This document shows, piece by piece, positions 48,982 to 58,239 of a stretch of 64,000 nt of DNA. The stretch's first letter is position 1. Each line of letters opens with the position of its first letter. Below the pieces are notes generated by a model that did no database searches, had not been told where the DNA came from, and saw only the letters and a list, made by a program, of their open reading frames with translations. Origin of the DNA: Bacteroidales bacterium (GTDB lineage: Bacteria > Bacteroidota > Bacteroidia > Bacteroidales > UBA932); NCBI GenBank assembly GCA_017630215.1, contig JAGBVR010000011.1, forward strand, positions 1 through 64,000, read 5' to 3'. The translations under genes and the position numbers were made by a program.

Positions 48982-49824
48982 ATGGAAGAAGCAATCGCAA
49001 TCATCATTGCCACTATTGTCATACTCATCTCCAACTGGCGAATCAGTAAGTGGAAGAAAGAAGCCGCCACTGCATACTTCATCATCGGCCAGAAAGCCAC
49101 CACTTCTGAAGAACGCGAATGGGCTTACCGCAAAGCCTTCAAATACGGTCACACTAAAGCAAAACTATTCTACATCTATGCAGCTGCCAACACATTCAGC
49201 GGACGCAAACCATTAACTCCATTCACCATTGCCACAGACAAAGGCGAAAACCCCATCGTTGCCATATTCTACGACTATTATATCCGCGCTAAACATCTAC
49301 CTTACGCCAGCAACATCCAACAAGAAATCACACAGAGAGTCCTTGAACTCAAAGATGGTTTCACCCCCTCATCAGACCTATACTCAGAAGCCCTACGAAC
49401 ACTTGAAACCTATTTCAACGAGAATTGGAAAACTCCACAAGGACCAACCATCATCTTTATGCCCTGCAGCAGCGAACAAGCCTACTTTAATCGTTTCGCC
49501 ACACTTGCCCGGAGCCTAAGTCAAAGATATCATTACAATACTGCTATCGACGCAATCCAATACACCGACACTCGTAAAAGCAAACATCGCAGTCAGAACC
49601 GCGACGCTATAGAATCCGCATCAAACATAGTAATTTCGCCGAAGATCATCGGCAAGCAGGTTATAATAATAGACGATGTGATCACAACCGGCGACAGCCT
49701 TCACCAATTCGCAAAAGAACTCCGCACCTACGGAGTTACAATCAAGGCTGCTGTCTTTCTCGCCCAGACTGCAAAATATCCGACAGATAAAAAACTATTT
49801 CGTGAAATTAGAAAGATTACTTAA
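48982..49824 (+). CDS. Membrane-anchored phosphoribosyltransferase-domain protein
   Basis: This 280-residue protein has an N-terminal membrane helix (IAIIIATIVILI). A helical, Sel1/TPR-like stretch follows (about 25-75), then a linker and a C-terminal type I phosphoribosyltransferase domain (about 145-275) with the PRPP-binding loop VIIIDDVITTGDS at about 226-238. ComF-like proteins share this loop. Substrate unknown; in a recombinase-bordered island it may act on nucleotides during defence. Its last 8 bp overlap the convergent gene 49817-50227. Confidence 0.6.
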   Translation: MEEAIAIIIATIVILISNWRISKWKKEAATAYFIIGQKATTSEEREWAYRKAFKYGHTKAKLFYIYAAANTFSGRKPLTPFTIATDKGENPIVAIFYDYYIRAKHLPYASNIQQEITQRVLELKDGFTPSSDLYSEALRTLETYFNENWKTPQGPTIIFMPCSSEQAYFNRFATLARSLSQRYHYNTAIDAIQYTDTRKSKHRSQNRDAIESASNIVISPKIIGKQVIIIDDVITTGDSLHQFAKELRTYGVTIKAAVFLAQTAKYPTDKKLFREIRKIT

Positions 49825-50227
49825 GTACGGAAACAAAAGACTTCGGCAAACACACATTCTCCAACCCTACAGTTCCAGCAAACAAAGGGGCAATGTCCTT
49901 ATCCCTGAATCCGGCAATTCCGCATCCGATACGGGTCACATAAAAGAACAGCTCCGGATGTTCACCAGCAAAAGCAATGAACTCATCCACGTATGGCTTG
50001 ATCGTTTCTACCCTACCTTGCATAGTAGGAATCGCATAGCTCTGCCCACGAAGTCCGACACCACATCCCATCACAGCACCAAACTTCTTGAAAGCCACAT
50101 ACGCAGCTCCACCTCCGTGCATCCCTGCCAGATTGCTTCCGAAAACAAACACCTCATCTTCGCGAAGCTCCTCAATCATATCCGGCGTATGCTCTGGCCT
50201 CTCTATTCCTTTATATAATATAGCCAT
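49817..50227 (-). CDS. A1S_2505-like phage-type protein
   Basis: This 136-residue protein has EVFVFGSNLAGMHGGGAA and GLRGQSYAIPTM, the hallmark stretches of a small phage and prophage family (A1S_2505-type non-structural proteins), with a macro-domain-like look. It may bind or process ADP-ribose-like nucleotides; that is inference. The family name is from memory. It converges with and overlaps the phosphoribosyltransferase gene by 8 bp. Confidence 0.6.
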   Translation of the reverse strand: MAILYKGIERPEHTPDMIEELREDEVFVFGSNLAGMHGGGAAYVAFKKFGAVMGCGVGLRGQSYAIPTMQGRVETIKPYVDEFIAFAGEHPELFFYVTRIGCGIAGFRDKDIAPLFAGTVGLENVCLPKSFVSVLK

Positions 50228-50350
50228 TGTTTTTTATCTTGATCCGTCACAAATTTTGCAAATATTTGTGACAATTGCAATGTGGCAATGATATTTTACC
50301 ATACGTGGAAAAAGGAGGAATGCCCGATGGCACCCATCTTGAAAATAGAA

Positions 50351-50547
50351 TAATAAAGAAGCGTGGGCGCAAGCTTATCCATCCTGGGGCCCTGAGAATG
50401 CCCAATCGCCGATAAGTTCAGCCCACGCTAATGCGTAGGCATTTACTGAACTTATCCGGAGGCGAACGATCTTGAAATTTCTCAGGTTTCAGGTTGCCCG
50501 AATAAATAGCAAATGCTAACTATGAAAATGTTATCTTTTACCTATGT
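50351..50547 (-). ncRNA. Putative pseudoknot ncRNA, copy 1 of 3
   Basis: A minus-strand transcript of about 197 nt is predicted, with the -7 box TACCTTTG at 50554-50561. Helix A is GATAAGTTCA/TGAACTTATC (+ strand arms 50447-50456 and 50411-50420). Helix B is GCGTGGGC/GCCCACGC (50421-50428 and 50361-50368). The 5' arm of B lies inside the loop of A, next to the 3' arm of A, so both can form only as a pseudoknot. Within the loop of A is a small hairpin AATGC-CTAC-GCATT. The 3' end after helix B is T-rich (TTCTTTATT). No protein frame fits. Copies 2 and 3 lie at 54315 and 58025. Confidence 0.65.
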
Positions 50548-50576
50548 ATATCGCAAAGGTAAGAATTATTTTGAAA

Positions 50577-50888
50577 TCAGTTACATATCTCCTCACCTGG
50601 AACAACATCCAGTATCGAATCCACGTAACTCATTTCCAGATGGAAATCCTCAGGAACTGAAATCCCTATCTCCACTAAAAAGTCATACACTCCAGTCCAC
50701 TCTTCTCTCCCACAGGAGATTGAAGCCACTCTCGTGATAATATAGAAGAGTTCTGTCACACATTCCTGTCTGGCAGACTCTGCAGACGAAACATCAGGTT
50801 CCATCTCACTCAAAAGGCCTATGGCCGCATCTAACGCAAGGCACACAGCCCGGCCTTTCGTCAGGATCAAGTAATCTTTCTTGTTCAT
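50577..50888 (-). CDS. Small hypothetical protein
   Basis: This 103-residue soluble protein (MNKKDYLILTKGRAVCLALD) appears mostly helical and acidic. No family is recognised. The frame is open to 50912, but ATG 50888 is preferred. It is driven by the shared-box promoter P1 (51023-51069). The leader of about 128 nt contains a terminator-like hairpin (50954-50983), so the gene may be controlled by attenuation. Confidence 0.5.
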   Translation of the reverse strand: MNKKDYLILTKGRAVCLALDAAIGLLSEMEPDVSSAESARQECVTELFYIITRVASISCGREEWTGVYDFLVEIGISVPEDFHLEMSYVDSILDVVPGEEICN

Positions 50889-50953
50889 TAGTCTTAATTT
50901 AAAGGTTACCAATCCCGCCGGCGGCTATAATAATGTATATACATTTCAACAAA

Positions 50954-50983
50954 AAGCCTGTAAATCCTAAGATTTACAGGCTT
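50954..50983 (-). terminator. Terminator hairpin inside the leader of the 50888 gene
   Basis: AAGCCTGTAAATC / GATTTACAGGCTT, a 13-bp stem with loop CTAA, followed on the minus strand by TTTTTG. It lies downstream of the nuclease-helicase gene end (51178) but also between promoter P1 and the 50888 start. It may end the operon, or act as an attenuator of the small gene. Confidence 0.75.
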
Positions 50984-51022
50984 CGAATAGATTCCCTGTG
51001 TTATCTAGAATCAACCTACTCA

Positions 51023-51069
51023 CAAAGTTACTATTGTATAATATGGAAAACGAATATATCCGCCTTACA
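51023..51069 (-). promoter_or_regulatory. Shared-box promoter P1
   Basis: The box TGTAAGGCGG (minus strand, 51060-51069) lies exactly 29 bp before the -7 box TAACTTTG (51023-51030). A TTCG-containing -33 region is between. It faces the 50888 gene. Confidence 0.6.
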
Positions 51070-51177
51070 CCTTGAACTAATAACCTTACAATATGAGAGT
51101 CAATTCATTGATAATTAGATTATGCCTAAAGTTTTATATTTAGATACATATTGACAATCTTACATAGTGAGGAATTG

Positions 51178-52713
51178 CTATTTGTGCACTAATAATTGAT
51201 GACATCTCTCGAGTATTGCTTCATTATTTAATATCACTAAATGGATATTTTTTCGAGCTCTGGTCAAAATCTGATATAACATTCGTTCCTCATCATAATA
51301 GTCCCCGTTCCTAAAAGTTAATTTACCATTAGTGTCATAATACATATTTGGTAATACTACGGCAGCCACTTTATCAAACTCCTGTCCCACTACTTCATGT
51401 GCACTCAATTCACATATCGACATAATACTTTCATAATGCGCCCTATTATATGCATGATGATTTGGAGTAAATCGAGGAATAACATAACCCCTAGCTTTAA
51501 GATGACCTATAATATTATAGCATTCTATCGCGTTATTACAATACGTTACATTAATATATTCCGGGCTAACTGACATACATTCTATTCGATTATTAAATAG
51601 CCCTTTTATAAAATTCTCAACATTCTTATTAGTTCGAATCTTCCCTGTGAGCTTATAATGATGCTGTTCATCTACGACAGTTTTAATTTTTGCTTCATTA
51701 CCATTGTTAAGCTCATTTCTATGGAGACGTTGTAATGCATCATAGCATATTACGCATTTTATTCCTAATGCTTCTGCGGCTGACAAAATCTCACCCAAAT
51801 GATGACAGCGCTGCGCTTCATCTATTAATATAATATCTGCAGAATCAAAATCCCAATAGGAACGTGTTACACTTATGTATTTATAGTATGCTTTGGAAGG
51901 TTTTATAGTCCATTTAGTAATATCAATTAATGTGCGCTGTCCTGGATTTAAATTGCCACTATGAACTACGGCTGTCCTCACTCCATTAGATTCTAGCTCC
52001 TTCACAATATCATAAAGTAATAACGTCTTGCCAGTTCCGGCCCCGCCCTCTATAGCATAGCACATAAATCCAGAATCTTCTTCTATACTTCGCAATATCT
52101 TATTCTTAATTTCTTCTTGTTGTCTATTCAGGAAGTATTTACTATCCAAAAAATCTTGTGGAGAATTAAAAGGTGACACCAGATACTTACTCGGTTCAAA
52201 TAAACAATCTAATTTCGAATCTTCGATCGGCGTATTTGAAGTAGAGAAATTCTTTAATGCTTTACCGACAGCTTTATTGTCCGTAATAACTAGTTCTCCT
52301 ACTTCATTCAAAGTATAATATACTTTATTTTGGGCTTCAAATGCAAATAGTTCAATACTCTTGCCTAGAGAACTTAAATAATACTGATTTCTCAATAGTT
52401 GCTTGAGTATTTTCGCTTCTGGTACGGGCTCACTTTTAAATTCGATATTAACGATAGACTTATCTCCTATCCATAATGCGTCGAACTCCTTTCCTATTTG
52501 AGGAATTTCATAGCCAAGGTAACAGGCATCAGTTATTATATATATATCCTCCGGATCCTCAAAGAGATTACACAAGTCTTCAATAAAAGTTCTCACACTG
52601 TATGGCTCTTTCGATTTAAGTGTCACCCCGTGAATTGTGCACCACTTTTTAAAGAAATCACTATTCATTGATGCGCTACAGGCAGCTACTTGCTTTAAAT
52701 TAATTGATTTCAT
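51178..52713 (-). CDS. Nuclease-helicase fusion (PD-(D/E)XK-like domain plus DUF2075-type ATPase)
   Basis: The product has 511 residues. The N-terminal part (about 60-125) has EFDALWIGD, then IEFKSE (Asp78, Glu91, Lys93) and a Gln-containing helix, the pattern of NERD or related PD-(D/E)XK nucleases. The P-loop helicase part follows, with Walker A GGAGTGKT at 223-230, Walker B IILIDEAQ at about 294-301, and late motifs VVGQEFDKV and YQILTRARK. This is like DUF2075 helicases. The frame is open to 52806, but ATG 52713 leaves a 16-bp gap after the dGTPase gene, so the two form an operon. Such nuclease-helicase proteins are common in phage defence; function here is inferred. Confidence 0.7.
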   Translation of the reverse strand: MKSINLKQVAACSASMNSDFFKKWCTIHGVTLKSKEPYSVRTFIEDLCNLFEDPEDIYIITDACYLGYEIPQIGKEFDALWIGDKSIVNIEFKSEPVPEAKILKQLLRNQYYLSSLGKSIELFAFEAQNKVYYTLNEVGELVITDNKAVGKALKNFSTSNTPIEDSKLDCLFEPSKYLVSPFNSPQDFLDSKYFLNRQQEEIKNKILRSIEEDSGFMCYAIEGGAGTGKTLLLYDIVKELESNGVRTAVVHSGNLNPGQRTLIDITKWTIKPSKAYYKYISVTRSYWDFDSADIILIDEAQRCHHLGEILSAAEALGIKCVICYDALQRLHRNELNNGNEAKIKTVVDEQHHYKLTGKIRTNKNVENFIKGLFNNRIECMSVSPEYINVTYCNNAIECYNIIGHLKARGYVIPRFTPNHHAYNRAHYESIMSICELSAHEVVGQEFDKVAAVVLPNMYYDTNGKLTFRNGDYYDEERMLYQILTRARKNIHLVILNNEAILERCHQLLVHK

Positions 52714-52729
52714 CAGATATTTCAGCGTT

Positions 52730-54061
52730 CTATTTATTATCTTTTCTTTTATATGTGATAGAGTCAAATGAAACTCCGAAATGCTTTTCATACAATGAAA
52801 TAGCATAGGTATCCATCATACCGGCAATATAATCTATTACAGCCCTATGAAGCATTTCATCTGTTTTAGGACGATAATCCGGCGGAAGAAGATTATGCTT
52901 AATGTTATATTCTTTATCTATGAACATTTCATATAAGCCCTCAATAACTTCCTTGCCTCTTCTTTCATATAGCACAATTGTATCACTCCTATTTATACAA
53001 TCAAATGTTATTTTCTTAAGAGAATGCACCAATTTCTCACAAGAATTGAATCCAAGTTCATATGTAGCCTTAGTCCCATGTTCTTTCCTCATAGAATCAG
53101 ATATCTCCACAAGAGAAATATCCCTAATGAATGTATCTGTCAATGATGATATTAGCGACTTCCTAAAAATTTGCGAGTACTCTTGTATAGTTTCACGAGA
53201 TTTTATGGCTGATGCTTGTATCTTTGCATCAGAAACGCATTGTTGAAAGACCTTAATTATTGGATCGCCATTAAGTTTCTTACCAAGTATATATTCAAAC
53301 TCATCAATATTGAAACATCCTAATGATAACGCATCTTCTAAATCATGTACAGCATAGGCAATTTCATCGGCTATATCAATAATCTGCACATCTAAAGTTC
53401 TGACTTCTTCCAACCCAGCCTCTTCACGAATGCTAGCTAAGACATCATAATCATCTTTATACATGAACTTCTCAAGTCCTTTGTCTTGCTCTTCATTAAC
53501 AATATACTTATTGATTCCTAAAAGCGTTCTGTATGTAAGATTTAATCCTGTACAACTTGGCAGTTTCTTTTCTAATGTCCGCAGAACTCTATAATTCTGA
53601 GCATTACCTTCAAAACGATTACAATCGCTTAATTTGTCAAGTACTCTTTCACCACAATGTCCAAAAGCAGGATGGCCGATGTCGTGTGCTAAAGCAGCAG
53701 CTTCGATAACATAAAGATCCGTACTGCTATTATACGCATCACCTTTAAGTATTAAGCCGATTTGTGAGGCAATAAATCTTGCAATTTGAGACACCTCTAG
53801 ACTATGAGTTAAACGATTCCTAAAGAAAGCATCTGTCTGAATGCCAAGAATCTGCATCTTTCCCTGTAAACGTCTAAAAGACGACGAACACAGAATACGA
53901 GTATAATCGCGGTGAAAATCATTCCTTGGCCTGACACCGACAATATTGTCACCGTGTTCCCTGCGATTCAGAATCTCATTACTAGTTCTTTTATACAAAT
54001 CATGGAGGAAGTCACGTGCCACCTCAGTATCAAGATTAGTTAATAATACATTGTGTTCCAT
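52730..54061 (-). CDS. dgt: dGTPase (HD-domain deoxynucleoside triphosphate triphosphohydrolase)
   Basis: This 443-residue protein has the HD metal residues His86, His126 and Asp127 (AAALAHDIGHPAFGHCGE) and a later Asp in IIDIADEIAY. The N-terminal RDYTRILCSSSFRRLQGKMQ matches Dgt. It splits dNTPs (dGTP preferred in E. coli Dgt) into nucleoside and triphosphate. In defence systems such enzymes starve phage of dNTPs (known). It is the first gene of an operon with the nuclease-helicase. Promoter P2 (54169-54225) and a leader of about 100 nt precede it. Its AT-rich codons differ from those of the core genes before 47400. Confidence 0.8.
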   Translation of the reverse strand: MEHNVLLTNLDTEVARDFLHDLYKRTSNEILNRREHGDNIVGVRPRNDFHRDYTRILCSSSFRRLQGKMQILGIQTDAFFRNRLTHSLEVSQIARFIASQIGLILKGDAYNSSTDLYVIEAAALAHDIGHPAFGHCGERVLDKLSDCNRFEGNAQNYRVLRTLEKKLPSCTGLNLTYRTLLGINKYIVNEEQDKGLEKFMYKDDYDVLASIREEAGLEEVRTLDVQIIDIADEIAYAVHDLEDALSLGCFNIDEFEYILGKKLNGDPIIKVFQQCVSDAKIQASAIKSRETIQEYSQIFRKSLISSLTDTFIRDISLVEISDSMRKEHGTKATYELGFNSCEKLVHSLKKITFDCINRSDTIVLYERRGKEVIEGLYEMFIDKEYNIKHNLLPPDYRPKTDEMLHRAVIDYIAGMMDTYAISLYEKHFGVSFDSITYKRKDNK

Positions 54062-54168
54062 AAATAATGTGTTATTGATTTCTGGTTACTTAATACAATG
54101 CATAATAAATTATAGTGGCCTATAGAGGCATCATAATCATTACGGATTTATTACAAAATTGGATACTA

Positions 54169-54225
54169 CAAATTTACTAACTCCTTTTTTCTTACCCTTA
54201 AATTTCGACAAGAAATCGCCTTACA
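54169..54225 (-). promoter_or_regulatory. Shared-box promoter P2 (dgt operon)
   Basis: The box TGTAAGGCGA (minus strand, 54216-54225) lies 39 bp before the -7 box TAAATTTG (54169-54176). Confidence 0.6.
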
Positions 54226-54314
54226 CATTTATTCGTAAATAGTTGTGGAATAGTAATATATGACAAAATAGAAAATAAAATTCTTACAGAAGCCTAAAAC
54301 GCGAGATCCACTTG

Positions 54315-54524
54315 ATAATATACACGAAGCACGGGCACTACCTGTGCACATCCTCACGGGTCTCGACTCCCTTCCGATGGTACAAAACAGGCAGGCCCGC
54401 GCAGAACGCAGGCGCTAATGCCCGTTGTACTCGTATCGGAAAATTAATTGTCGAGATTAGAGGATCGAGTATAACAGCAATAACGCAGTTATTGTATGTA
54501 TTGTTCTTAGTTTTACCTTGCTGA
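54315..54524 (-). ncRNA. Putative pseudoknot ncRNA, copy 2 of 3
   Basis: A minus-strand RNA of about 210 nt is predicted, with the -7 box TATCTTTG at 54531-54538. Helix A pairs CCGAT and GTACAA (within 54425-54439) with TTGTAC and ATCGG (54374-54385), with a bulge. Helix B is GCGCGGGC/GCCCGTGC (54395-54402 and 54329-54336) with one G-U pair. The arms follow the same order as in copies 1 and 3 although the base sequence differs. The loop of A contains GCATTAGCG, shared with copy 1. Confidence 0.65.
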
Positions 54525-54682
54525 ACTTTGCAAAGATAAGGAAAAATCGCATAAGCACAACACTTATTTCATAACATTGACGAACAAATCGAGAGCAAGA
54601 TCTTGCCGGCTGAGACTGTGAAAGATTGGGCTAAACAATAAGCCGTATACCAGTCTAATAATCATCACATTACGACAATCTC

Positions 54683-54729
54683 TGTAAGGCGAATTTATTT
54701 GCACACCATATTATATATAAGTAACTTTA
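54683..54729 (+). promoter_or_regulatory. Shared-box promoter P3
   Basis: The box TGTAAGGCGA (54683-54692) lies 29 bp before TAACTTTA (54722-54729). A TTTG at 54698-54701 serves as the -33 element, 20 bp before the -7 box. The start codon at 54762 follows. Confidence 0.65.
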
Positions 54730-54761
54730 TCATTAGCAAACAACACCTTATTATATATAGT

Positions 54762-55349
54762 ATGGACTACTTCATCCTGATCATAATTATCCTGGTCATT
54801 CTCTCATTGGGAATGGTCATCACTTCAATAGTTATATTGCGCAATATCAAGAAGACGAGACACTCACCAGCTGACACCATCAAGCCTATAGTGGACCAAC
54901 TGGCTGCAATCCACAAGGATCTCGATACAATCAGGAGAAACTCTGTCAACACAGAAAGAAACATCGCTACAATAAAAAACGGCATCAACACTATAAATGC
55001 ATCCCAAATAACAGACTATTATCTTTCACAGACCCTCAGCCTAAAACGCTCCTGGGATAATCTCTCCACATACACTGGGCTTTTATCAAAAGTCCGTCAC
55101 CTCAGCACTACCGACTCTGAGGACATACTATACAGACATATATACTCTCTGGTGCAAGATACAGAAACCATCGCTTCGCAGATAAAAGCAACGTGTGACA
55201 TATCAGCTCAACCAAAACGGAGAATGCTGGCCTCGCTCAAGATAATGTATCAAGGTACCATCTTACCGATTATAGAAGAAGTCATACCAATCATAGATAC
55301 CGAGCTCCAGAGCACATTGGATAAACTCAAAAAAGCCCTGAACAAATAG
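54762..55349 (+). CDS. Membrane protein with coiled coil
   Basis: This 195-residue protein has one N-terminal membrane helix (YFILIIIILVILSLGMVI) followed by long helices with coiled-coil patterns (PIVDQLAAIHKDLDTIRRNS). It has no known domain. The frame is open from 54699, but ATG 54762 lies just behind promoter P3. The gene may provide a membrane scaffold for other island proteins; that is inference. Confidence 0.6.
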   Translation: MDYFILIIIILVILSLGMVITSIVILRNIKKTRHSPADTIKPIVDQLAAIHKDLDTIRRNSVNTERNIATIKNGINTINASQITDYYLSQTLSLKRSWDNLSTYTGLLSKVRHLSTTDSEDILYRHIYSLVQDTETIASQIKATCDISAQPKRRMLASLKIMYQGTILPIIEEVIPIIDTELQSTLDKLKKALNK

Positions 55350-55607
55350 CAACTGTCAAACTTTTAACACCACCGAAAGACTTTAATCTTCATCACAAGC
55401 TTAAATGGCTGATATACAATATACTTCCATCACGCAATGAAAGACGGCAGATTTGCAGGTCAAACTTTGAATGATTAACTTTGTCATCCCTGATGCAGGT
55501 AACAATATTCTCGACTACTTGTTACACGCGCAGATATGCTACAGTATCACCAAGATGCTGTAGATGCGTGACCTTATAAATAACCGAGAACATACTTTAT
55601 CTGCTAT

Positions 55608-57305
55608 ATGAGAAAACTTATCACGATTCTAATCCTCACTTTGACCGCTATCTCCTGCGGCAAAATCAAAGACGCCCACAACACCCTTAATGATATTGAG
55701 ACGTTCATTAACGAACGGCCTGATAGTGCCCTGACGATCCTTGATTCATTCGACACGTCTCTCCTTGAGAACAAAAGCATTTGGGCCCACCACTCGCTTC
55801 TCCACGCTCAAGCCAAAGATAAATGCTATATTGATGAGACCGATGATTCGTTGATGACTCAGGTAGTAAACTACTACGAGGGCAAACGAGACAAAGAGAA
55901 ACTCTTCAAAGCATACTATTATCTCGGCCGTATCCAGCATAATGCTGGCAACTACACTGAATCTATGCTTTCATACACCAGAGCGGAGCAACTGACAAAT
56001 GAGATTGAAGATGATTTTAGTAAAGGGTTATTATATGCTCAGCTTGGAATGTTGCATCTTGAATATTATGATTATGACAGAAGTTTAGAAGCCTACACAT
56101 ACGCTCTAGGCAATTACATTTTAAGTAATAAAGTCACTCATCAGTATTACACTAAACTGAATATAGGTCACGTATATCATGAACAAAAATTATACTCCCA
56201 AGCGGAGGAAATGTATAAACATGTGCTAGAGTGGGCATATGATAACAATATAGATTATCTGTGTGTCGAAGCAATTGAGTTCCTAATTACTTTATATGAT
56301 GAAACAGATAGAACGCAATTAGGCATAGAATTACTTAATAGTAAATATGGGGCAAGGTGCCCTGAATCCTTATATACTATTAGAGCCAAAGCTTACGAAG
56401 CTGCTTTATTAGGAAATAAACAGGCTAATGAGATTATTGAAAATAATGCCTGGATGCTATCTAAAACGATTACAGACACTATAAATAACTATTATTATCA
56501 ATATCGGATTCACAAACTACTGGGTAATTATAAAGAGGCCTCGGTTATATATGAGAACATATACCATATTCAAGACACCCTAACCGTTGCCGCATATAAA
56601 CGGCCTCTGCTCACTACAAAAAACAGTTATTTGCAGGCAGAAAATGATTATATGCAATTAGTATTAAGGAGCAATAGAGCCATATTGGCTTTTATTGTAT
56701 TTATAACACTATCTGTAATAATAGGATTGTGTATTCTATTCAAGCGTAGGCTCGATTTAAAGCAGACTGAAATTATCAGGTATGTAGAAATCGCTAAAGA
56801 TATGGAGCATACACTAATTTCTAAAACAATAGAAGTCGAGAAAATATCCAAAGAGATGGGAGTGCTAGATAATGAGTTAAGAAATAGTAGCAATGAGATC
56901 GCGAGTATGATGAGAAAACAGTACGAACTACTCAACAAATTAACAAATACATATTATGAGACTCATGTATGTAATAAAGACAAAGAAGCTATATACAAAC
57001 AAGTAAGTACGGAAATTAAGAGACTGGGATCAGACCATAAGGCAATTCAACAATTAGAAGCATTGGTAAACCGTTATCAAAGTAACATCATGCAGGTAAT
57101 CAGACATAATCTACCTAATATGAATGATATAGACTATGTAATATTGTGTTATTTATGTGCCGGATTTTCTGCAAAAGCAATTAGCATATTCACAGGAGTT
57201 ACGACAAACTACATTTACGTTAAGAAGTCTAGAATTAAAGTTGAGGTTATGAAGCTCAGCCCAGAAATACGAGACTTGATTTTGACAGCAATATGCTCAC
57301 AATAA
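55608..57305 (+). CDS. TPR membrane regulator with C-terminal LuxR-like HTH
   Basis: This 565-residue lipoprotein-type protein has its lipobox Cys at 17 (AISC). TPR repeats follow (about 95-330; YLGRIQHNAGNYTESMLSYT). Then come one membrane helix (about 357-376, AILAFIVFITLSVIIGLCIL), a coiled coil (380-470) and a C-terminal helix-turn-helix (about 500-560; DYVILCYLCAGFSAKAISIF). This layout, a periplasmic TPR sensor with a cytosolic HTH, is typical of Bacteroidetes membrane regulators. The -7 box TAACTTTG lies at 55477-55484. Codon and base composition shift from GC-richer to AT-rich at about 56010, inside the gene, which suggests mosaic origin. Confidence 0.7.
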   Translation: MRKLITILILTLTAISCGKIKDAHNTLNDIETFINERPDSALTILDSFDTSLLENKSIWAHHSLLHAQAKDKCYIDETDDSLMTQVVNYYEGKRDKEKLFKAYYYLGRIQHNAGNYTESMLSYTRAEQLTNEIEDDFSKGLLYAQLGMLHLEYYDYDRSLEAYTYALGNYILSNKVTHQYYTKLNIGHVYHEQKLYSQAEEMYKHVLEWAYDNNIDYLCVEAIEFLITLYDETDRTQLGIELLNSKYGARCPESLYTIRAKAYEAALLGNKQANEIIENNAWMLSKTITDTINNYYYQYRIHKLLGNYKEASVIYENIYHIQDTLTVAAYKRPLLTTKNSYLQAENDYMQLVLRSNRAILAFIVFITLSVIIGLCILFKRRLDLKQTEIIRYVEIAKDMEHTLISKTIEVEKISKEMGVLDNELRNSSNEIASMMRKQYELLNKLTNTYYETHVCNKDKEAIYKQVSTEIKRLGSDHKAIQQLEALVNRYQSNIMQVIRHNLPNMNDIDYVILCYLCAGFSAKAISIFTGVTTNYIYVKKSRIKVEVMKLSPEIRDLILTAICSQ

Positions 57306-57398
57306 TCACACATATAATCATCGTTAATACATGTGTAAGATAATGACATATAAAATTATTTTTAATCACCTGTTTAACAACTGTTTAGCGTAGCACAC

Positions 57399-57455
57399 TG
57401 TAAGGCGAATATTTGTAATTTTTATTCGACATTAAGATGCCAATGAGTAACTTTG
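57399..57455 (+). promoter_or_regulatory. Shared-box promoter P4
   Basis: The box TGTAAGGCGA (57399-57408) lies 39 bp before TAACTTTG (57448-57455). The start codon is at 57477. Confidence 0.65.
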
Positions 57456-57476
57456 CACTGATAAAAACAACATCTT

Positions 57477-57875
57477 ATGAAGAAAGTATTATTAATATTT
57501 TTTGCGTTTCTACTTAGTATAAATGCGATCACATGCTTGGCTAACAATGTAGCTGATAACGAAGAAATCAAGCCATCGACATACGAGCCTATTGTTGTGA
57601 GAAAAGAACCCACCAACTTCCACCGCTCCCTCGAAGCCCCAATCTTCGCCTACTATGCAGCTGGCACAATCAACCTTGACTTCGTCGAGAACCTTGGCGC
57701 AGCCACAGTAGTAATTCAGAACCTCACAGCGGGCGCCCAGGTAGCAGAACTTATCGACACAGGAATGGGTAATGTTGTAATAGACATTGACAGCATCCTT
57801 ACAGTAGGCAACTACTATATGACTATCACCACAATGTCCGGTGATGTATACTACGCAGAGTTTACTCTTGAATAA
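57477..57875 (+). CDS. DUF3244-like exported protein
   Basis: This 132-residue protein has a signal peptide (MKKVLLIFFAFLLSINAITC, possible lipobox Cys at 20). A single beta domain follows: FHRSLEAPIFAYY, AATVVIQNLTAGAQV and a final YYMTITTMSGDVYYAEFTLE. These strands fit the DUF3244 family of small Bacteroidales exported proteins. The 3' two thirds use GC-rich codons unlike the 5' part. The terminator at 57966 ends the gene. Role unknown. Confidence 0.65.
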   Translation: MKKVLLIFFAFLLSINAITCLANNVADNEEIKPSTYEPIVVRKEPTNFHRSLEAPIFAYYAAGTINLDFVENLGAATVVIQNLTAGAQVAELIDTGMGNVVIDIDSILTVGNYYMTITTMSGDVYYAEFTLE

Positions 57876-57965
57876 AATTGTATAACTGACCCAATTTTCA
57901 TACTTTTGTCATTAAAGACTTGCAGGTCCTTATATGGCAAAACTTAAACAACACACAATTCAACA

Positions 57966-58002
57966 ATAAGGCGGCCTGGATCTTATTCCATAGCCGCCTT
58001 AT
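57966..58002 (+). terminator. Terminator after the DUF3244 gene
   Basis: ATAAGGCGGC (57966-57975) pairs with GCCGCCTTAT (57993-58002), followed by an AT-rich stretch. Confidence 0.8.
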
Positions 58003-58024
58003 ATATTTCAGGTAATACTACTTT

Positions 58025-58219
58025 ATCAAAAGAAAGCGTGGGCGCCATCGTCTCTGTATATCCTCTGGTCACTACTCCTCCGATAATACAGGCCGATACG
58101 CCCACGCAAATTGTGGACGTAATTGCCTGTCGTGCACGTATCGGAATTAGATGTAGTGAATGAGGATCGAGCCAGACAGCAAAAACGTTGTATGTCTATT
58201 CCGTTCAAATTATCCTTGA
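58025..58219 (-). ncRNA. Putative pseudoknot ncRNA, copy 3 of 3
   Basis: A minus-strand RNA of about 195 nt is predicted, with the -7 box TATATTTG at 58226-58233. Helix A is CCGATACG/CGTATCGG (58137-58144 and 58093-58100). Helix B is GCGTGGGCG/CGCCCACGC (58099-58107 and 58036-58044). The A 3' arm and B 5' arm touch, sharing two bases, so the helices compete or stack as a pseudoknot. CTCGATCCTC near the 5' end is shared with copy 2. The 3' end is TTTCTTTTG. Confidence 0.65.
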
Positions 58220-58239
58220 ACAGCACAAATATATATCTT

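What the first reader, a model, noticed from the sequence alone, without database searches (positions are those of the whole stretch)
50351..58219. Three copies of a minus-strand pseudoknot RNA with their own promoters
Loci 50351-50547, 54315-54524 and 58025-58219 each have a TAnnTTTG box on the minus strand followed, 183-195 nt later, by the end of a helix (B). Helix B's 5' arm lies in the loop of helix A, directly beside or close to the A 3' arm. The base sequence of helix A differs between copies (GATAAGTTCA; CCGAT plus GTACAA; CCGATACG), yet its partner arm changes with it. The same holds for helix B (GCGTGGGC, GCGCGGGC with a G-U pair, GCGTGGGCG). Compensatory change in both helices, constant order and constant length argue strongly for a selected RNA. 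I cannot assign it to a known RNA class. The three copies alternate with the island's defence-type genes.
Basis: partly seen in the sequence, partly recalled or inferred. Interest (0 to 1): 0.88.

Follow-up and report, generated by a model that had tools for sequence, protein, structure and literature searches.

The report
Widespread two-state leader RNA in Bacteroidota
The three odd stretches are real copies of a large, apparently uncatalogued RNA family of Bacteroidota bacteria whose strands can pair in two competing ways, like a molecular switch, usually just in front of genes for secreted or surface proteins or for DNA-restriction systems.

Summary
The three window copies (c1 50356-50521, c2 54327-54493, c3 58034-58195, minus strand) belong to one RNA family; c3 is the weakest call. 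The own genome holds three more copies. Covariance models hit 117 of 400 genomes of the genus, 142 of 398 of the family, 114 of 295 of the order and 52 of 395 of the phylum, and 14-24 places in four genomes picked for high copy number. No Rfam 15 family reaches its gathering score on the element.

A U-run ends the RNA, and the next gene is usually on the same strand about 55 nt on. Downstream genes are mostly secreted-looking, or restriction-modification (R-M) genes in the set found with model R2. In R-M loci a second M-like element near the start codon can pair with F (31 of 34 against 5 of 31).

Best reading: an attenuator-like bistable leader; trigger unknown. c2 and c3 look free-standing.

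The parts
50554..50561 (-). c1 -7 promoter-like box TACCTTTG
   Evidence: pattern position
50356..50521 (-). c1 RNA (subfamily that in relatives precedes R-M and other genes)
   Evidence: R2 135.1 bits E 2.7e-29; R3 119.1 bits E 2.4e-17; both models contain c1; R1, without c1, 17.3 bits E 0.0055
50498..50516 (-). c1 segment F (pairs M)
   Evidence: sequence; helix
50478..50486 (-). c1 loop L1 (kisses L2)
   Evidence: sequence; covariation
50433..50459 (-). c1 segment M (pairs F or T)
   Evidence: sequence
50410..50428 (-). c1 segment T (pairs M or tail)
   Evidence: sequence
50391..50398 (-). c1 loop L2 (kisses L1)
   Evidence: sequence
50361..50370 (-). c1 tail GCGCCCACGC, followed by TTCTTTATTATT
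   Evidence: sequence
49817..50227 (-). 136-aa gene 129 nt 3' of c1; no Pfam family at E 0.01
54531..54538 (-). c2 -7 box TATCTTTG
54327..54493 (-). c2 RNA (second subfamily)
   Evidence: R1 162.1 bits (in training set); R3, without c2, E 4.8e-5, 9.5e-4 in whole genome
52730..54061 (-). HD plus HD_assoc gene (dGTPase-like, name recalled) 265 nt 3' of c2; a TAAATTTG box lies in the gap
58226..58233 (-). c3 -7 box TATATTTG
58034..58195 (-). c3 RNA (second subfamily), no same-strand gene follows closely
   Evidence: R1 155.9 bits (in training set); 71% identity to C23 copies; R3, without c3, E 0.044, 0.86 in whole genome

Best explanation
A Bacteroidota-wide structured RNA, about 165 nt in the modelled core, that acts mainly as a cis-acting, two-state (attenuator-like) leader. 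Four segments F, M, T and tail lie in order. In state OFF (inferred), F pairs M and T pairs the tail directly before a U-run, forming a long terminator hairpin; hairpins K1 and K2 in the two domains kiss through loops L1:L2. In state ON (inferred), M pairs T, which frees F and undoes the T:tail stem, favouring read-through into the gene about 55 nt downstream. In R-M loci the freed F can also pair with a second M-like element M' that otherwise pairs with the start-codon region, so that termination and translation would be switched together. SHOWN by computation: the family, the competing pairings and their covariation, the U-run, gene co-orientation, F:M' complementarity, and the 5' box in most loci of the genus and family. 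INFERRED: transcription, termination, direction of control. UNKNOWN: the trigger (protein, metabolite, RNA, temperature or chance). c2, c3 and the C23 copies are probably free-standing products of the same switch, as nearby genes have their own boxes or none follows.
For: Covariation scan of 80 sequences (97 collected, 17 dropped as >93% alike or of odd length), alignment made without structure: most of the top-ranked pairs lie in L1:L2, outer P1, F:M, M:T apical, T:tail and K2; the rest are not base pairs. On 28 diverse sequences, state A has 88.2% of cells paired against 38-46% when slid, state B 89.1% against 37-44%; no shuffle of 500 reaches either covariation score. The same T bases serve both partners: at seven M-T-tail positions both pairs are standard in 65 of 78 up to 80 of 80 sequences, e.g. 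GTA 37, ATA 17, GCG 14. TAnnTTTG within 80 nt 5' in 75 of 86 loci of sets 1-2 against 66 of 1492 background windows; first downstream ORF same strand 77 of 79, within 150 nt 67 of 79, no box in 65 of those 67 gaps. Order-level sets 3 and 4: same strand 26 of 26 and 24 of 25; named-genome sample 79 of 86. U-run in 141 of 145. F:M' z<-2 in 31 of 34 R-M loci, 5 of 31 others. G-U 721 against A-C 131 in the helices. Prefix folding: F:M forms first and is lost by 112-120 nt.
Against: No transcript, termination or ligand data. P2, the part of M:T that competes with F:M, covaries weakly in the 80 sequences (one of nine pairs in the top 1%), and at one F-M-T position only 19 of 78 keep both pairs; the apical part of M:T is compatible with F:M and competes only with T:tail. 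In pseudoknot-free folding the finished RNA is the rod and T:tail never appears; two-domain plus kissing is only about equal (median -2.5 kcal/mol, 54 of 80 favour it, no loop penalty). In the rod the tail can still form a short hairpin before the U-run (61-84% paired), so both states might terminate. The box thins out away from the genus: 46 of 46, 29 of 40, 17 of 30, 8 of 26 in sets 1-4, 38 of 83 in the named sample. Set 1 is full of related R-M loci (27 distinct first-25-residue starts among 42), so its counts are not independent. G-U excess is partly column make-up and absent from L1:L2 and K1 (8:8, 17:17). c2 and L004a/L036 genes have their own box; c3 has no gene. Downstream genes are diverse. 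Shuffles do not model phylogeny.
Confidence: 0.55

Rival explanations
1. A free-standing small RNA with its own promoter and intrinsic terminator that acts in trans, F being the seed that pairs with M-like elements at start codons; the neighbouring gene is only the nearest target.
For: Box at 5' in 75 of 86 loci of sets 1-2 and U-run at 3'. c2 and L004a/L036 genes have their own box, c3 has no gene. F is free in the rod and complementary to M' before R-M start codons.
Against: First downstream ORF same strand in 77 of 79 and 79 of 86, with gaps clustering near 55 nt and no box in 65 of 67 gaps: expected for a leader, not for a free sRNA. Outside R-M loci F rarely has a target there (5 of 31).
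Confidence: 0.26
2. A ligand-binding riboswitch of a new class: K1-K2 kissing loops form the aptamer and F/M/T/tail is the expression platform.
For: Kissing architecture with conserved GGU...ACC closing pairs and GAAA...UUUC stem, alternative stems and U-run as in terminator riboswitches (recalled).
Against: Loop sequences L1 and L2 vary as long as they pair, unlike a binding pocket; downstream genes share no evident pathway.
Confidence: 0.12
3. A DNA element (cruciform recombination or REP-like site, possibly moved by HUH/RAYT-like transposases or a cassette integrase) that only looks like RNA.
For: Dispersed, up to 24 places per genome, sometimes near contig ends and next to toxin-like ORFs; HUH-like ORF beside L027 and similar ORFs upstream of L082 and L084 (identity recalled from the SNHIHEIV-type motif, no Pfam match for the L027 one). 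R1 also matches the opposite strand of c3, L004b and L005 at 34-51 bits, so the element is partly palindromic.
Against: R3 finds only the sense strand in the window and four related loci and nothing at 20 RAYT loci (R1 best E 0.32). G-U 5.5 times A-C overall, above the 2.5-4 fold that column make-up alone gives in the F:M, M:T and T:tail helices. Strand-specific U-run and gene orientation.
Confidence: 0.07

Closest known systems
Transcription attenuators of the 1:2/3:4 versus 2:3 type (trp-like leaders)
   Same: Four consecutive segments, competing pairings, last stem abutting a U-run, gene close downstream.
   Different: No leader peptide noticed by eye; each half carries a subhairpin and the two kiss; one family before very many unrelated genes. 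Attenuator anatomy is recalled, not tested against a model.
Orphan riboswitch / terminator-type riboswitches
   Same: 5' leader with alternative stems and terminator-like end.
   Different: No ligand or coherent regulon seen; loops variable.
abiF RNA (RF03085)
   Same: Structured RNA near Abi_2 genes; one of our loci (L004) carries both.
   Different: 37-nt model, separate place (L004 8256-8292); no match to our RNA.
GUCCY-hairpin motif (Weinberg 2010, PMC2864571; seen only as a row of the paper's Table 1)
   Same: Bacteroidetes; our tail often contains GUCCY (AGUCCCACGC).
   Different: Could not be compared: its alignment is not held and the table gives no Rfam number; partial overlap is not excluded.
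Kissing-hairpin regulators
   Same: Covarying loop-loop pairing L1:L2.
   Different: Here intramolecular and combined with a strand-exchange switch (recalled comparison).

Membership tests
Any Rfam 15 family | match at gathering score over the RNA | tested here: not met
   Searches (window; 40 loci): none reaches gathering over the element. Far-below-threshold overlaps only: mir-7180 at L079 1479-1553 (25.9 of 78 bits, E 0.32) and IscS1_thermometer antisense to c2 (19.3 of 58 bits, E 4.7)
abiF RNA RF03085 | CM match over the element | tested here: not met
   only at L004 8256-8292, outside our copies
Transcription attenuator (1:2/3:4 vs 2:3) | mutually exclusive conserved pairings | tested here: met
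   strong for M:T apical against T:tail, weaker for M:T P2 against F:M
Transcription attenuator (1:2/3:4 vs 2:3) | U-run directly after the last stem | tested here: met
   141 of 145
Transcription attenuator (1:2/3:4 vs 2:3) | gene directly downstream, same strand, no other promoter | tested here: met
   for most relatives examined (only one promoter motif was sought); not met for c2 and c3
Transcription attenuator (1:2/3:4 vs 2:3) | regulated termination | not testable with these tools
   needs transcription assays
Riboswitch | conserved ligand pocket and coherent regulon | tested here: inconclusive
   regulon diverse; pocket not identifiable
Riboswitch | ligand binding | not testable with these tools
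   none
REP/RAYT element | presence at RAYT transposase loci | tested here: not met
   no credible copy at 20 RAYT loci (R1, R3)
Cassette/attC-like DNA hairpin site | selection on a folded DNA strand rather than RNA | tested here: inconclusive
   G-U excess argues for RNA but is partly due to column make-up
Type III toxin-antitoxin RNA | constant neighbouring toxin gene | tested here: not met
   neighbours vary:

The most novel reading that the evidence does not exclude
A phylum-wide RNA strand-exchange switch gives bistable or stochastic ON/OFF expression of accessory surface proteins and restriction-modification systems: an RNA counterpart of phase variation. In R-M loci a single freed strand (F) would lift both termination and start-codon block, so that the methylase comes on in one step.
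Probability: 0.25. Interest if true: 0.93.

Novelty: new variant of a known kind. Interest (0 to 1): 0.84.

Why it matters
A structured RNA found across Bacteroidota, in some genomes in 14 or more copies, yet absent from Rfam 15 (its abundance was not compared with that of other RNAs). It offers a testable rule for how these bacteria control accessory secreted proteins and DNA restriction systems, whose ill-timed expression could be harmful, and a case in which selection seems to keep competing RNA folds in the same bases.

Tried and rejected
abiF RNA and Abi_2 partner: abiF is a separate element in L004, and Abi_2 was seen only at L004 and, as a fragment, at L030. RAYT/REP element: an HUH-like ORF flanks L027, and RAYT matches occur in 13 of 18 genomes searched, but no credible RNA copy lies at 20 RAYT loci (R1 best E 0.32; R3 none). 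DNA cruciform or attC-like site: G-U bias and strand-specific signals speak against it, not decisively. Leader-peptide attenuation: no short conserved ORF was noticed 5' of F by eye (no formal test). F:M' as a family-wide rule: fails outside R-M loci (5 of 31). Tail-only short hairpin as the sole terminator: paired in 61-84% with little covariation. Plasmid carriage: no match to one order-level copy; phage: one partial match, MT835758.1. The RNAalifold fold of six close copies misaligned the 3' part; it was used only to build R1. Control of R3 on other phyla was not run.

Papers seen: PMC2864571 (found passages, including Table 1), PMC7366714 (found passages), PMC11109978 and PMC8632094 (term counts only, all zero); all others as search listings only. 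Novelty searches: open-access library only; subscription papers and supplements not seen.
Full report
WHAT WAS CHECKED. The three loci were read and folded: z-scores -4.03, -4.55 and -4.63, with none of 200 dinucleotide shuffles folding as well in any case. A DNA search of the window's own genome with c3 gave two more copies, 325 bases apart on contig C23, at 71% identity; of 100 further genomes, one of the same genus (G039) carries relatives.

THE FAMILY. Model R1 (six close copies) hit 11 of 200 genus genomes at E<=0.01, two of them its own sources, and gave c1 17.3 bits. R1 also matched the opposite strand of c3, L004b and L005 at 34-51 bits, against 154-170 bits on the sense strand, so the element is partly palindromic. 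c1 proved to belong with the divergent hits: it shares a 5' stretch with L010, L012, L014, L015 and L017. Model R2 (those five and c1) hit 117 of 400 genus genomes and 142 of 398 family genomes in 22 of 25 genera, both at E<=0.01. Model R3 (28 diverse sequences, including c1 and the C16 copy) hit 114 of 295 order genomes in 80 of 183 genera and 52 of 395 phylum genomes in 26 of 171 genera, at E<=0.001. The draws overlap, and in large searches the tool scores few candidates per genome with stricter filters, so counts of genomes and copies are lower bounds. The own genome (58% complete) has seven places at E<=1: C16 (1.9e-18), c1 (2.4e-17), C23 (3.5e-4 and 0.003), c2 (9.5e-4), C50 (0.04, uncertain) and c3 (0.86). 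Searched in the window and four related loci only, R3 finds ten places, all on the expected strand: c2 4.8e-5, c3 0.044. No Rfam 15 family reaches its gathering score on the element in the window or in 40 further loci. Two far-below-threshold chance matches overlap it: mir-7180 at L079 (E 0.32) and IscS1_thermometer antisense to c2 (E 4.7).

THE STRUCTURE. From 97 sequences collected, 80 were kept (dropped: more than 93% alike, or outside 130-190 nt) and aligned by MAFFT without any structure. A covariation scan over all column pairs put at the top pairs of these helices: L1:L2 (consensus columns 35-41 with 121-127), outer P1, F:M (5-23 with 59-78), M:T apical (77-84 with 89-96), T:tail (89-107 with 139-157) and the GGU-ACC stem K2. 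Other high-ranking pairs are not base pairs and probably reflect shared ancestry. What excludes what: T:tail excludes M:T; F:M excludes P2 of M:T (61-69 with 99-107) but not its apical part. P2 is the weakest helix: of nine pairs one is in the top 1% and a second in the top 3%, though 77-99% of cells pair. On alignment A9 (28 sequences), state A (F:M, T:tail, L1:L2) has 88.2% of cells paired (slid controls 38-46%), 24 of 31 pairs with change on both sides, covariation score 0.483 against 0.245 in shuffles. State B (M:T, L1:L2, outer P1) has 89.1% (slid 37-44%), 22 of 27 pairs, score 0.603 against 0.272. No shuffle of 500 reached either score; the shuffles ignore phylogeny. Within single molecules the shared bases fit both partners: at seven M-T-tail positions both pairs are standard in 65 of 78 up to 80 of 80 sequences, with changes such as GTA, ATA, GCG; at seven F-M-T positions in 19 of 78 (the outermost), then 59 of 78 up to 74 of 79. 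Loops L1 and L2 sit in the hairpins K1 (UUGAAA...UUUCAA) and K2 (GGU...ACC), so they can kiss while F:M and T:tail are formed. G-U pairs outnumber A-C oppositions 721 to 131. By helix: F:M 5.3, P2 4.8, apical 19.4, T:tail 7.5, but 1.0 in L1:L2 and K1. Column make-up alone would give about 2.5-4 in the first four. This argues for RNA of this sense, moderately.

ENERGETICS. Prefix folding of nine sequences (c1, c2, c3, L061, L066, L121, L109, L129, L145): mean F:M pair probability is 0.33-0.99 at 80 nt and falls to 0.04 or less at 112 nt, in L066 at 120 nt; M:T ends at 0.42-1.00, lowest in c3 and c2. That model allows no pseudoknot and never shows T:tail. Adding the L1:L2 duplex energy without penalty, the two-domain state is about equal to the best nested fold (median -2.5 kcal/mol; 54 of 80 favour it). 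So the states may be close, and kinetics or a partner could decide; this is inference.

CONTEXT. Sets 1 (49 loci) and 2 (40): of 86 with enough upstream DNA, 75 have a TAnnTTTG box within 80 nt, against 66 of 1492 background windows; of 79 with enough downstream DNA, the first downstream ORF is on the same strand in 77 and starts within 150 nt in 67, and 65 of those 67 gaps have no box. ORFs were called by script, and set 1 holds many related R-M loci (27 distinct starts among 42). The box thins out: 46 of 46, 29 of 40, 17 of 30, 8 of 26 in sets 1-4, 38 of 83 in the named-genome sample. Gene orientation does not: 26 of 26 and 24 of 25 in sets 3 and 4, 79 of 86 in the named sample, 67 within 150 nt, gaps clustering near 50-57 nt (of 115 stretches, RNAs without a recognised tail or 500 nt downstream were left out). 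A U-run lies at the 3' end in 141 of 145. Downstream proteins look secreted by a simple N-terminal rule in 1 of 30 of set 1, but 16 of 25, 16 of 24, 16 of 23 and 50 of 65 of sets 2-5, against 155 of 456 other ORFs. Set 1, found with R2, is dominated by methylases (23 of 30 unique): EcoRI_methylase PF13651 followed by GmrSD_N/HNH at L029 and look-alikes, and a second methylase-like pair (no family search). Over all sets 25 of 156 unique downstream proteins bear the methylase motifs.

THE R-M EXTENSION. Between U-run and start codon of these R-M genes lies a conserved element (such as GGATAAGTCGCAAGTGCC or GAATAAATCAAATGCC) that resembles M and can pair with the sequence around the start codon (by eye). 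F pairs with this gap better than with its shuffles (z<-2) in 31 of 34 R-M loci, against 5 of 31 other loci (first run, 34 of 65 in all).

THE WINDOW'S COPIES. c1 has a same-strand 136-aa gene 129 nt on, with no exact box in the gap. c2 lies 265 nt before an HD-domain gene that has its own TAAATTTG box; c3 has no same-strand gene nearby; the C23 copy L004a precedes a TPR gene with its own box. So in the window itself only c1 resembles the leader arrangement; c2 and c3 are better read as separate transcripts.

CONCLUSION. A real, widespread RNA family that Rfam 15 does not hold (firm); a conserved two-state switch (well supported, P2 least); a cis-acting attenuator-like leader in most relatives (inference, 0.55); trigger unknown. 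Novelty in print was checked only in an open-access library; the GUCCY-hairpin motif of PMC2864571 could not be compared.

Noticed in passing
L004 8256-8292 (own genome C23): An abiF RNA (RF03085, E 2.9e-6) upstream of an Abi_2 gene (L004 7344-8237), beside two tandem copies of our RNA: two different structured RNAs at one defence-type locus.
   Followed up: partly
L027 9634-10563, and ORFs upstream of the RNA in L082 and L084: HUH/RAYT-like ORFs (motif like SNHIHEIV, recalled; no Pfam match for the L027 one, the other two not searched) divergent from the RNA by 101-231 nt.
   Followed up: partly
R-M loci among L057-L105, gap between U-run and ATG: Start codons of EcoRI-methylase-type genes often lie in AAGCGCAGCTTATGG, which can pair with an upstream ATAAGTCGC: a possible translational control of R-M genes.
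   Followed up: partly
window 50240-50280: Inverted repeat TTGTCACAAAT...ATTTGTGAC just 5' of the 136-aa gene: looks like an operator.
   Followed up: no
window 55608-57875, L004, L035, L036: Second-subfamily RNAs recur beside TPR-protein genes and small secreted-looking proteins (the window one matches DUF3244 only at E 0.003, below cut-off).
   Followed up: no
window 51178-54061: Minus-strand pair of a protein with a Schlafen-group helicase domain and an HD/HD_assoc protein: defence-like, function not tested.
   Followed up: no
L171 1963-2092: Group II intron domain match (RF01999, E 4.2e-10) near one RNA copy.
   Followed up: no
phage record MT835758.1, 3089-3195: Partial match (74.5% identity, 54% of the query, E 7e-7) to an order-level copy of the RNA: the family may travel on phages.
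   Followed up: no
L162 (G075), L177 (G814), L191 (G817), L170 (G835): PIN-domain-like or PemK-like toxin ORFs (names recalled from sequence look) end 39-86 nt upstream of the RNA, recalling gene-cassette arrays.
   Followed up: no
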